Below are positions 20,696 through 58,608 of a DNA stretch of 64,000 nt, one piece after another. Origin of the DNA: Planctomycetota bacterium (GTDB taxonomy: Bacteria > Planctomycetota > Planctomycetia > Planctomycetales > Planctomycetaceae); assembly GCA_016872645.1 (NCBI GenBank), contig VGZH01000008.1, positions 1 to 64,000 of the forward strand. The letters run 5' to 3'. Positions within the stretch are counted from its first letter, which is position 1; the number at the start of each line of letters is the position of its first letter. Both the position numbers and the translations under genes were made by a program. The notes beneath the pieces are model-generated. The model was not told the DNA's origin. It saw only the letters and a list, made by a program, of their open reading frames with translations, and ran no database searches.

Positions 20696-21487
20696 CTACT
20701 TCCCCAGCAACATACGCACGCTCGCGCCAATGTCGGCGGACTTCATCAGCGATTCGCCAACGAGAATCGCTCGGCAGCCGGCGGTGGTGAGGCGTTCGAC
20801 GTCGGCTCGCGTACGGATGCCGCTTTCGGCCACCAGCAACGATTGAGCGGCGATACGAGGAGCCAGCCGGATCGTCTGGTCGAAGTCCGTGATCATCGTC
20901 TTCAAGTTACGATTGTTGACACCGACCAGCGGCGGTTGCAGCTTGAGCACTCGGTCGAGGTTGTCCGGTTCATAAAGCTCGATCAAACATTCCATGCCCA
21001 GTTCGCTGGCATAGAAATAGAGATCGCGCATCGTGCAGTCATCGAGACATTCAGCGATCAGCAGAATCGCATCCGCCCCCGCCGTGCGAGCCTCCAGCAC
21101 TTGATAGCGATCGACGATGAAATCCTTTCGCAGCACCGGCAACGAGACCGCTCGCTTGATCGCCGTCAGATATTCGAGCCGCCCTTGAAAATACTTCTCG
21201 TCGGTCAGGCAACTGATGCACGCGGCTCCGTTGGCTTCGTAAGTCTTTGCGATCGCGACCGGATCGAAGTCCGCTCGAATCAACCCCGCCGACGGCGACG
21301 CCTTCTTCACCTCGGCAATCATGCCAATACCAATTCGCTCGGCGGACGACTGCAATGCGGCGACGAAGTCACGAACCGGCGGCGCGGATTTCAATTCCGA
21401 CTCCAAAACAGCGGCGGGCCTTCGCTGTTTCGCTTCCGCAATTTCCGTGCGCTTGTCAGCGACAATTTCATCTAAGACGTTAGGCAT
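20696..21487 (-). CDS. trpC: Indole-3-glycerol phosphate synthase
   Basis: This is a 263-residue TIM-barrel enzyme that closes the indole ring in tryptophan synthesis. Typical marks are MPNVLDEIVADKR, EVKKASPSAG, CLTDEKYFQG, LPVLRKDFIVD, VGVNNRNLKTM and LVAESGIRT. In-frame ATGs exist at 21505 and 21508, but those codons lie inside an inverted repeat arm (21494-21528), so I prefer the ATG at 21487, where the family N-terminus begins. It stands alone, away from trpA. Confidence 0.95.
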   Translation of the reverse strand: MPNVLDEIVADKRTEIAEAKQRRPAAVLESELKSAPPVRDFVAALQSSAERIGIGMIAEVKKASPSAGLIRADFDPVAIAKTYEANGAACISCLTDEKYFQGRLEYLTAIKRAVSLPVLRKDFIVDRYQVLEARTAGADAILLIAECLDDCTMRDLYFYASELGMECLIELYEPDNLDRVLKLQPPLVGVNNRNLKTMITDFDQTIRLAPRIAAQSLLVAESGIRTRADVERLTTAGCRAILVGESLMKSADIGASVRMLLGK

Positions 21488-21493
21488 GAGGAG

Positions 21494-21625
21494 CAAAGTA
21501 GCCATCATCGTTCCGCATGACGAGCCTTCCCGACGGGATGATCGAATCGAATAAGAGACTCGCGTTCGCCAGTTGAAAGGCGTGTCGCGAAAGGCTCATC
21601 ACGCGGAACGATGATGGCTACTTTG
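21494..21625. repeat. MITE/REP-like element with 35-base inverted arms
   Basis: Arms at 21494-21528 and 21591-21625 are inverted copies with 33 of 35 identities (core GTAGCCATCATCGTTCCGC), around a 62-base spacer that contains no gene. The element sits immediately upstream of trpC and must be part of, or insulate, its leader. No transposase is present, so movement would need a helper in trans. Confidence 0.85.
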
Positions 21626-21781
21626 ATCTGGAACGATCCGCACACTCGGAGAACTGGTCGGCGAAAATGACCGCTCAGGCATCGAGTCTGCTTGATGTGA
21701 GTCGTTTTATCCGATACCAATTGCGTCCCTGCCAATGATCCCGCCTCGTTTTCGCCGACCGTTGTCTTGAGGACACCGCTC

Positions 21782-23155
21782 ATGGCCGCGACGAACCGCC
21801 TCGGTTGCACTGAGTTTCAGCGCACGCTGCTCAATCGCCGCAGCTTTTTGAAGGCTGGGGCGTTGGGTTTTGCGGCGGGTGGGCTGTCGCTGGCGGATGT
21901 GCTGCGCGGCGAAGCGGCGACGGACGGGGCGACTCGCAAAAACAACGTGATCATTCTCTGGATGCGCGGCGGGCCTGCTCATCAGGATATGTGGGATCCC
22001 AAGCCGGACGCTCCGGTCGAGTACCGCGGTGAGTTCGGCGTTATCCCGACCAAAGTCCCCGGCATCATCCTCTCTGACATGCTGCCGATGTCGGCGGCGA
22101 TCCAGGACAAGTATTCGATCATCCGCAGCCTGAACCATCACGACGCGGGGCATTCGACCGGGGATCAGATCTGCTTCACGGGTTACAACTCCGGCCCGAA
22201 CGCCGACGAGAACATTCATCCGAGCTGCGGCAGCATCGCCTCCGAGCAACTCGGTCACTTGAACCCGGACCTGCCGGCCTACGTCATGATTCCGAAGCTG
22301 CTGCCGGGAGCGAACTCGGCGTATCTCGGCGTGGCTCATAAGCCGTTCGAGACGCTGGCTGATCCGGCTCAAGAAGGTCCGTTCAAGGTTCCGAATTTCG
22401 CGTTGCCTGAAGGTCTGACGGCGGATCGACTCGGCTCGCGACGCGAAGTCCTGCAAGGCTTCGACCGCATCAAGTCGGAGATCGATCGCAGCGGCCAAAT
22501 GTCGGCGATGGACCGATTCCAAAACAGTGCGTGGGGCATTCTGAGCTCCGACAAGGCGCGTGCCGCGTTCGATCTCAATGCTGAGCCACACGCGATTCGC
22601 GAGCGTTACGGATTCATGCCCGCATTCGATCCGAAGGCCGCCGACCGCTGCGGAGCTCCCGCTTGGAGCCAGCGGATTCTGTTGGCTCGTCGATTGGTCG
22701 AGGCGGGCGTGCGCATCGTGACGGTCGATCTCCGCTGGTGGGACACGCACGTCAAAGGGTTCGAGTCATTGCGACTCGGCTTCCTGCCGCGCTGGGACCG
22801 AGCGTTCTCGGCATTGATCGAAGACCTCGAGCAGCGCGGGTTGCTCGACACGACGCTGGTGGTCGGTTGGGGCGAGTTCGGTCGCACTCCCCGAGTCAAC
22901 AACAACGCCGGGCGCGACCATTATCCGAATGTGTTCAGCGCGGTGCTGGCCGGCGGCCCGGTGCAGGGTGGCCGAGTGGTCGGTTCATCGGACGCCTACG
23001 CGGCGTTTCCCAAGAGCAATCCAAAGTCGCCGCAAGACGTGCTGGCCTTGATGTATCGCCATCTCGGCGTGGACATTCACCGGAACTACGTCAACCGCGC
23101 CGGTCGCCCGATCCCGGTCCTGCCCTTCGGCACGCCGGTTGATGAGCTGTGTTAG
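21782..23155 (+). CDS. DUF1501 domain exported protein
   Basis: This is a 457-residue protein with a Tat-type signal (NRRSFLKAGALGFAAGG) followed by the DUF1501 sulfatase-like fold: VIILWMRGGPAHQDMWDPK, HHDAGHSTGD and WGEFGRTPRVN. The family is abundant in planctomycetes and usually pairs with a DUF1553 cytochrome; here the nearest DUF1553 gene is 9 kb away. TTGAGGA lies eight bases before the ATG at 21782. Its biochemical role is not established; an exported hydrolase is the common guess. Confidence 0.93.
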   Translation: MAATNRLGCTEFQRTLLNRRSFLKAGALGFAAGGLSLADVLRGEAATDGATRKNNVIILWMRGGPAHQDMWDPKPDAPVEYRGEFGVIPTKVPGIILSDMLPMSAAIQDKYSIIRSLNHHDAGHSTGDQICFTGYNSGPNADENIHPSCGSIASEQLGHLNPDLPAYVMIPKLLPGANSAYLGVAHKPFETLADPAQEGPFKVPNFALPEGLTADRLGSRREVLQGFDRIKSEIDRSGQMSAMDRFQNSAWGILSSDKARAAFDLNAEPHAIRERYGFMPAFDPKAADRCGAPAWSQRILLARRLVEAGVRIVTVDLRWWDTHVKGFESLRLGFLPRWDRAFSALIEDLEQRGLLDTTLVVGWGEFGRTPRVNNNAGRDHYPNVFSAVLAGGPVQGGRVVGSSDAYAAFPKSNPKSPQDVLALMYRHLGVDIHRNYVNRAGRPIPVLPFGTPVDELC

Positions 23156-57016: not shown

Positions 57017-57138
57017 CGACTCATCTCCCTGGGCCCTTGGGGAAGGCCAAAGCATTCTGACAACCGCACTGGCTGACAGGAATCGTCAATGCGAAAAACT
57101 TTGGGAGTTCGTACCTCTTCGGCTCGTCATGCAGAGCG

Positions 57139-58608
57139 ATGACGGGTACTTTGTTGGGCATGTTGCCGATTCGCCACGAATTACAGAGGGTGCCGCGCCG
57201 CGAGTTTCTCGTGACCACCGGTGGTGGATTCGGATCGCTCGCGCTCACGGGATTGCTGGCGGCGGACGAAGCGACGCCCCGAAATGTGCGTCCGGCTCCC
57301 AAACCGGACTACAACGGCGGGCTGCATCATAAAGCCAGGGTCAAGCGAGTCATTCAGCTCTTCATGAATGGCGGCGCGAGCCCGATGGACACATTCGACT
57401 ACAAGCCGGAGCTCATCAAAAAGCATGGCGAGAAGGTCGACTTCGGCCTGAAGTCAGCCGCGACCAGCGCCCCCGGTGCCGTGATGAAGTCGCCGTTCGA
57501 ATGGAAGCAGCACGGTGAATCCGGCCGCTGGGTCACGAGTGTCCTGCCGCAGATGGCGACAATCGTCGACGAACTCGCCTTTCTGATGGCGATGACCACC
57601 AAGACGAACGTGCATGGCCCCGCCAGCTACATGCAGAACACCGGTTTCACACAACCCGGCTTCCCGTGTTTGGGAGCCTGGATTTCGTACGGCCTTGGCC
57701 GGCTGACCGACAACCTGCCGATGTTCGTCGTGCTGCCGGATCTTCGCGGGCTGCCGTACAACAACACCGGCAATTTCTCTTCGGCGTTTCTGCCGATGGA
57801 ATTTCAAGGGACGATCATCAAGGCCAACGCCCCGACGCCGATCAATGATCTTTTTCCGCCGAAGTCCGCCAAGTTCATCACGCCTGACAGCGAACTCGCC
57901 GGACTGCGAGTCCTCGATGAACTCAACCGCGAGCATCAGAAGTCGCGGCCGGGAGACTCGCGGCTCGACGCGCGGATCGCCAGTTACGAGCTCGCGGCAA
58001 AGATGCAACTCTCTGCGCCCGAGGCTCTCGATCTGGCGAAGGAGTCCGAAGAGACGCACAAGGCGTACGGGACCGGCAACGCGCCGACGGCGGACTTCGC
58101 AAAGAGTTGTTTGACCGCTCGGCGATTAATCGAGCGAGGTGTCCGATTCGTCCAAGTTTGGAGCGGGGCAGGGGGAGCCTCGAATAACTGGGACAACCAC
58201 ACCAATATCGACAAGGAATTGCCGTCGATCTGCAGCCAAGTGGATCAGCCGATCACTGCGCTGATTCGTGACCTCAAACAACGCGGCTTGTTCGAGGACA
58301 CGCTGGTGATCTGGACGTCCGAGTTTGGTCGGATGCCATTCACTCAAGGAGCGACCGGCCGGGACCACAACGGCGGCACGTTTGTGACCTGGCTCGCTGG
58401 AGCCGGCATCAAGGCGGGAGCGACTCACGGCGAGAGCGACGAGTTTGCCTACAAAACCGCGAAGGACGAGACCTGGAGCTACGACCTGCACGCGACCGTT
58501 TTGTATCTGATGGGGATCGACCACACGAAGTTGACGGTTCGCCAAAACGGCATCGACCGCCGCATCACCGACGTGCATGGGCATGTGATTGAAGACGTGC
58601 TGGCGTAA
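57139..58608 (+). CDS. DUF1501 domain exported protein
   Basis: This is a 489-residue Tat-exported protein (PRREFLVTTGGGFGSLAL) of the DUF1501 family: RVIQLFMNGGASPMDTFDYKP, PASYMQNTGFTQPGFPCLG and WTSEFGRMPFTQGATGRDHN. It is a longer relative of the protein at 21782. The DUF1553 partner usual in planctomycetes is not beside it; the partner may lie elsewhere or have been separated. An ATG seven codons later is an alternative start. Confidence 0.93.
   Translation: MTGTLLGMLPIRHELQRVPRREFLVTTGGGFGSLALTGLLAADEATPRNVRPAPKPDYNGGLHHKARVKRVIQLFMNGGASPMDTFDYKPELIKKHGEKVDFGLKSAATSAPGAVMKSPFEWKQHGESGRWVTSVLPQMATIVDELAFLMAMTTKTNVHGPASYMQNTGFTQPGFPCLGAWISYGLGRLTDNLPMFVVLPDLRGLPYNNTGNFSSAFLPMEFQGTIIKANAPTPINDLFPPKSAKFITPDSELAGLRVLDELNREHQKSRPGDSRLDARIASYELAAKMQLSAPEALDLAKESEETHKAYGTGNAPTADFAKSCLTARRLIERGVRFVQVWSGAGGASNNWDNHTNIDKELPSICSQVDQPITALIRDLKQRGLFEDTLVIWTSEFGRMPFTQGATGRDHNGGTFVTWLAGAGIKAGATHGESDEFAYKTAKDETWSYDLHATVLYLMGIDHTKLTVRQNGIDRRITDVHGHVIEDVLA

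What the first reader, a model, noticed from the sequence alone, without database searches (positions are those of the whole stretch)
21494..21625. MITE/REP-like element next to trpC
Two 35-base inverted arms with 33 identities surround 62 bases without a gene and overlap two possible trpC start codons, which suggests insertion and a changed leader. Its symmetry would form a strong RNA hairpin upstream of trpC.
Basis: seen in the sequence. Interest (0 to 1): 0.5.

Follow-up and report, generated by a model that had tools for sequence, protein, structure and literature searches.

The report
Planctomycete REPIN in trpC leader
A tiny hairpin-shaped mobile DNA element, one of a scattered family that relies on a transposase encoded elsewhere, sits directly in front of a tryptophan-synthesis gene where related bacteria carry another gene, and it has probably changed how that gene's messenger begins.

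Summary
The inverted repeat is real: arms 21494-21528 and 21591-21625, 33 of 35 identical, 62-base spacer. Each arm is a REP (GTAG, then CATCAyCG-CTCCG-CGTGATG); together they form a head-to-head REP doublet (REPIN). The own genome holds at least 17 arms (E<=0.0013), including six clear dimers. The family occurs in 12 of 12 genomes searched in the genus, 3 of 14 outside it, and in other Planctomycetaceae and Verrucomicrobiota records. Two genomes hold a RAYT-like transposase gene with family dimers on both sides; a third has a truncated one ending in a dimer. Another own-genome dimer has a clean empty site in two congeners. At the focal site seven congeners carry a leucine-rich-repeat gene upstream of trpC; here it is gone and the REPIN fills the junction. 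Eight of eight compared congeners other than G004 start trpC with GTG behind a ribosome-binding motif; G000 and G004 have ATG and no such motif, and G000 has a long predicted hairpin ending a few bases before the start. It is a new member of a known kind; no intact RAYT for it was found in this genome. The effect on trpC is inferred.

The parts
21494..21528 (+). left REP arm, GTAG at its outer end; reads into the trpC leader; its own hairpin carries two changes against the right arm
21529..21590 (.). spacer of the REP doublet (62 nt)
   Evidence: spacers of other dimers
21591..21625 (-). right REP arm, GTAG at its outer end
20696..21487 (-). trpC (indole-3-glycerol phosphate synthase), ATG start at 21487; frame also open to ATGs at 21508 and 21505 inside the arm
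21631..21781 (.). intergenic stretch shared with G003, G006, G007 and G010 up to the edge of the element; presumed site of the trpC-direction promoter (not shown)
   Evidence: no sigma-70-like site found
21782..23155 (+). divergent DUF1501 gene, the conserved neighbour
57118..57152 (-). single decayed REP arm of the same family, shared with G005

Best explanation
The element is a GTAG-type REP doublet (REPIN): two REPs head to head around a spacer, a non-autonomous mobile unit moved by a RAYT-type HUH transposase. Shown here: the anatomy, the dispersed family, an empty site for another copy, RAYT-like genes flanked by the same dimers in two other genomes, and at trpC the presence of this copy where seven congeners have an ancestral leucine-rich-repeat gene. 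Inferred: a RAYT, now lost or not assembled in this genome, cut and joined single-stranded REP DNA; the gene was lost before, with or after the arrival; transcripts that reach trpC from the shared intergenic stretch now carry a long hairpin over the former ribosome-binding region, so trpC depends on the exposed ATG behind the hairpin or on RNA processing, for example by RNase III.
For: REP anatomy with GTAG head and bulged stem; at least 17 arms and six clear dimers in the own genome, 7 of the 17 arms not used to build the model; 12 of 12 genomes of the genus; C2 dimer of 123 nt against 14 nt in G004 and G006; dimers on both sides of RAYT-like genes in G045 and G040 and at the 3' end of a truncated one in G005, the stop codon TAG of all three lying in the REP's GTAG; related RAYTs carry REPs of the same layout with other stems; homology with four congeners ends at 21631, beside the element, and the LRR gene is found upstream of trpC in seven; loss of GTG and ribosome-binding motif, and a paired leader.
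Against: No intact cognate RAYT was found in the own genome. Most Y1/RAYT loci examined lack the family: 0 of 30, strong in 1 of 21, dimers on both sides in 2 of 46 sources. No congener shows a simple empty site for the focal copy. Only one stem pair covaries, and the number of covarying pairs does not exceed shuffles (311 of 500). The hairpin's contrast is weak right at the start codon: -15 to +3 is 25% unpaired against 29-47%. No promoter or transcript is known.
Confidence: 0.92

Rival explanations
1. A trpC-specific regulatory leader (attenuator-like or protein-bound hairpin) kept by selection.
For: It lies a few bases before the trpC start, is the best-preserved dimer of the genome and its arms still pair almost fully.
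Against: The same unit lies at many other places and the family model finds none near trpC in the congener loci searched (nine same-genus loci; G010 read). No Rfam match above threshold.
Confidence: 0.03
2. A miniature element of a DDE-transposase insertion sequence (classical MITE) with terminal inverted repeats.
For: Inverted arms and dispersed copies.
Against: Arms are GTAG-headed REPs, tied to Y1-type genes in three genomes; no target-site duplication at the one clean empty site. No search for DDE transposases was made.
Confidence: 0.03
3. A bidirectional terminator or a chance palindrome between divergent genes.
For: Strong hairpin.
Against: Not reported as terminator-like; the only such site in 21400-21900 is at 21679-21698. 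Chance is excluded. The flanking genes are divergent.
Confidence: 0.01

Closest known systems
REPIN (REP doublet forming hairpin), Pseudomonas fluorescens SBW25, Bertels and Rainey 2011 (PMC3116915; abstract and passages seen)
   Same: Two inverted REPs with a spacer predicted to fold as one hairpin, doublets as the unit, tied to RAYT genes
   Different: Other REP sequence and host phylum; here the copy abuts a start codon and stands where relatives have a gene; no excision data
GTAG-tagged REPs and their HH dimers (PMC3733652; passages seen)
   Same: GTAG at one end of a stem-loop, HH dimers with partners 20-100 bp apart; GTAG families already reported from Planctomycetes and Verrucomicrobia, several families in one genome (R. 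baltica, O. terrae)
   Different: Whether this consensus is among the printed families could not be seen (figures and supplements not held)
REPtron: tnpA-REP (RAYT) gene with flanking REPs, E. coli group 2 and others (PMC8266576 and PMC6006769; passages seen)
   Same: Y1 HUH gene with REPs on both sides (L384, L383); bulged stem as described for E. coli REPs
   Different: The proteins score 53-58 bits on NCBIfam REP_Tyr_transpos, below its cut-off of 80; subclass not determined; at the focal locus there is no transposase gene

Membership tests
GTAG-type REP | Tetranucleotide GTAG at the 5' foot of a short imperfect palindrome | tested here: met
   Both focal arms and most of 42 aligned arms
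GTAG-type REP | Multiple dispersed, mainly extragenic copies in the genome | tested here: met
   At least 17 arms on 10 contigs in the own genome; gene context judged only from open frames
REPIN / HH dimer | Two REPs in inverted orientation, GTAG outside, with spacer, able to form one hairpin | tested here: met
REPIN / HH dimer | Mobility of the doublet as a unit | tested here: met
   Shown for the C2 dimer by an empty site in G004 and G006; for the focal copy only replacement is seen
REPIN / HH dimer | Cognate RAYT gene in the same genome | tested here: not met
   Only a RAYT with another REP family, a sub-cut-off Y1 match and a decayed RAYT piece found; draft genome of 213 contigs. Families without their RAYT are described in PMC3733652 (passage), so this is not treated as excluding
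REPtron / RAYT | HUH motif and Tyr in a Y1_Tnp-like protein, gene flanked by REPs | tested here: met
   G045 and G040; Pfam Y1_Tnp cut-off passed by G045 and G005 proteins, not by G040; NCBIfam RAYT model matched below cut-off by all three. That the Tyr is catalytic is recalled
REPtron / RAYT | Binding and cleavage of single-stranded REP by the RAYT | not testable with these tools
   Needs purified protein
MITE of a DDE insertion sequence | Target-site duplication | tested here: not met
   None seen at the C2 insertion against its empty site
trp attenuator / leader regulator | Conservation of the hairpin upstream of trpC in relatives | tested here: not met
   No family match at trpC in the nine same-genus loci; G010 read

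The most novel reading that the evidence does not exclude
A REPIN has taken the place of both the upstream gene and the ribosome-binding region of a biosynthetic gene, so that trpC is now read from a leader whose long hairpin must be cut (for instance by RNase III) or bypassed: a selfish element turned into an expression element. The REP/RAYT pair behind it works in two phyla, Planctomycetota and Verrucomicrobiota, which would need transfer between phyla or a very old fixed specificity.
Probability: 0.2. Interest if true: 0.55.

Novelty: new member of a known kind. Interest (0 to 1): 0.36.

Why it matters
It gives a planctomycete genus a documented REPIN family with a matching transposase, an empty site and a polarised case in which a REPIN stands in place of a gene beside an amino-acid biosynthesis gene. 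REPs are described as predominantly downstream of coding regions (PMC3733652 abstract), so a copy abutting a start codon is a natural test of what such hairpins do to translation. The same REP sequence in records of two phyla makes it possible to ask whether REP/RAYT pairs cross phyla.

Tried and rejected
Rejected: a regulator conserved at trpC; a terminator; a known Rfam element (two matches far below their gathering scores, both of eukaryotic families); a plasmid-borne relative (no match). The only own-genome RAYT over the Pfam cut-off (C144) was first taken as the partner; it is flanked by a different REP family and has no focal-type REP. The weak Y1 match on C21 has no such REP either.

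A preference of the family for start codons was suspected from trpC, 57118 and the G045 RAYT. A count by open frames over 285 distinct arms gave 134 with a frame starting beside the arm, 124 with a frame ending there (41 of these running into the arm), 25 far and 2 without a frame, so no preference (frames only, no annotation).

Homogenisation of the two arms was considered because both focal arms carry T in the loop (CGTTCCG): among the loci held, two others have T in one arm with C in the partner (L288, L317), and a diverged match on C53 also has it. It stays unproved. The RAYT subclass was not settled; the 2017 paper on RAYT groups is not held.

Full report
Observation. The window holds an inverted repeat with arms 21491-21528 and 21591-21628 and 62 nt between them. 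The core 19-mer occurs twice in the window, 0.01 being expected, and the trpC-sense RNA folds at -90.4 kcal/mol, z = -14. The trpC frame is open from an ATG inside the arm (21508), but relatives align from the ATG at 21487.

What the arms are. A search of the own genome (G000, 5.76 Mb, 213 contigs) with the element gave partial copies on other contigs. Aligned, they show one unit: GTAG, then C-CATCA-y-CG-CTCCG-CG-TGATG-AGCC, a REP with a bulged base in its stem. In 42 arms (41 distinct) chosen from planctomycete and verrucomicrobial loci, one stem pair is A-U in 20, G-C in 19, G-U in 1 and unpaired in 1. Percentage paired and covariation score exceed all 500 shuffles, but the number of covarying pairs does not (311 of 500 reach it), and the rows are related. 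The stem is thus supported by one pair, the rest being nearly invariant.

Copies. A covariance model from ten arms (R1) finds 17 arms at E<=0.0013 in the own genome, seven of them not used to build it; only 150 of 7084 first-look candidates were scored, so this is a lower bound. Six clear head-to-head dimers are the focal one and those on C13, C63, C2, C1 and C31; C75 is a weaker pair; C8:57118, C70, C43 and C18 are single arms. Of 26 genomes searched, 15 match at E<=0.01: 12 of 12 of the genus (10 to 149 arms, same scoring limit) and 3 of 14 outside it with 5, 1 and 1 arms. Eight genomes picked from it hold 24 to 150 arms. These are mostly MAG records; binning was not checked, and some record names ('Kuenenia', 'Akkermansia') look doubtful to me.

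Mobility. The C2 dimer has an empty site: G004 and G006 have 14 nt where the own genome has 123 nt, with no target duplication. The frame upstream, which ends in TAA in G004, ends in the own genome at the TAG of the REP's GTAG. Five congeners show both flanks of this site and none has the dimer: G001 and G007 have other short tails, and G003 has a different GTAG palindrome pair. The single arm at 57118 is shared with G005, where it is better preserved, so older copies are inherited and decay.

Transposase. The own genome has one Y1 gene over the Pfam cut-off, on C144, a good RAYT by NCBIfam (187.6 bits) flanked on both sides by another REP family beginning GTAGGGTCGGC, and a decayed RAYT piece on C119. 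In G045 (the genome of L214, Planctomycetaceae bacterium AM_0621) and G040 (the genome of L245, Phragmitibacter sp.) an open RAYT-like gene lies between two dimers of the focal family. In G005 a RAYT fragment, cut at its 5' side by a stop, ends in the dimer that scores best among the 26 genomes. In all three the stop codon TAG lies in the REP's GTAG. The three proteins are 52-75% identical and keep HVH and Tyr motifs. They match NCBIfam REP_Tyr_transpos at 53-58 bits, below its cut-off of 80, and Pfam Y1_Tnp is passed by two of the three. Their kin on G006:C5 and G005:C473 carry REPs of the same layout with other stems. Against this, most Y1 or RAYT loci lack the family: 0 of 30 loci (30 of the 91 matches), strong in 1 of 21 loci and weak (E 0.0007-0.006) in 3, 46 partly overlapping sources drawn from the 92 matches, with dimers on both sides in 2, dimers 1.5-2.9 kb away in 1 (L385) and a weak arm in 1 (L388).

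The trpC site. Homology between the window and G003, G006, G007 and G010 runs through the DUF1501 gene to window 21631, beside the element, and stops; there the relatives continue into a leucine-rich-repeat gene (Pfam, for G006) read in the trpC direction, then trpC. Its homologue is also found upstream of trpC in G002, G005 and G009, with a further gene in between that is a GNAT acetyltransferase by Pfam (for G002). So it is probably ancestral in this group. It is missing in G000 and G004, which are sisters in a trpC tree at support 0.86 (one gene, G010 partial). G004 has another frame there, and a GTAGCAGCC palindrome. In G001 and G008 the 1500 and 729 nt examined show no such gene; G011 gave no trpC match. 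The REPIN therefore occupies the junction of a gene loss: two bases from the shared flank and three from the trpC start by the extended arms. Order of events is not known. A second dimer, C13, lies in a segment of about 2 kb that G006 and G011 lack (34 nt there), 13-17 nt from its right border; the rest of the segment matches other contigs in relatives. Of three dimers examined, one is a clean insertion and two sit at structural borders. That is too few for a rule.

Likely consequence. In one search eight of eight congeners other than G004 start trpC with GTG behind a GGAG- or GAGG-like motif (G010, read, fits too); G000 and G004 have ATG and no such motif. Since G004 lacks the dimer, the loss of the motif goes with the loss of the gene and not with the REPIN as such. 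In the predicted G000 leader bases -25 to -4 are 6% unpaired against 31-54% in the nine others; for -15 to +3 the contrast is small, 25% against 29-47%. If transcription still starts in the shared stretch 21631-21781 the message carries the hairpin. No sigma-70-like site was found there and no transcript is known, so this step is inference. RNase III processing is named from general knowledge of long double-stranded RNA; the enzyme was not looked for in this genome.

Place among known things. Anatomy, family behaviour and RAYT link are those of REPINs (PMC3116915, abstract and passages) and of HH dimers of GTAG REPs (PMC3733652, passages), already reported from Planctomycetes and Verrucomicrobia. 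Paper searches showed no listing that names this repeat family; figures and supplements were not seen, so the consensus may be printed there. Verdict: a new member of a known kind, in an unusual and informative place.

Noticed in passing
window 57118-57152: A single decayed arm of the same REP family ends ten bases before an ATG; the same arm, better preserved, stands at the same place in G005 (L286).
   Followed up: yes
L021:4093-4880: The own genome's RAYT (C144) is flanked on both sides by a second REP family, GTAGGGTCGGCTCCCGCC paired with GGCGGGAGCCTGCCCTAC.
   Followed up: partly
L144:1376-2386 and L152:1327-2353: Kin of the focal RAYT carry REPs of the same layout but other stems (GTAGCCCTGTCGCTCCGCGACAGG; GTAGCCGCCTCGCTCCCGCGAGGCGG), which suggests that stem and enzyme change together.
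   Followed up: partly
L178:1413-1500: At the C2 insertion site G003 has a different GTAG palindrome pair (GTAGGTTGGGACTCCGTCCCGACC), so two REP families entered the same short gap in different species.
   Followed up: partly
L185:245-2242: The C13 dimer lies at the right border of a segment of about 2 kb that G006 and G011 lack and whose parts lie on other contigs in relatives.
   Followed up: partly
L205:1900-2323: Between the leucine-rich-repeat gene and trpC G010 carries another insert of a few hundred bases with inverted ends (AGCCCAGGGTTGC...GCAACCCTGGGCT); the spot upstream of trpC differs from species to species.
   Followed up: no
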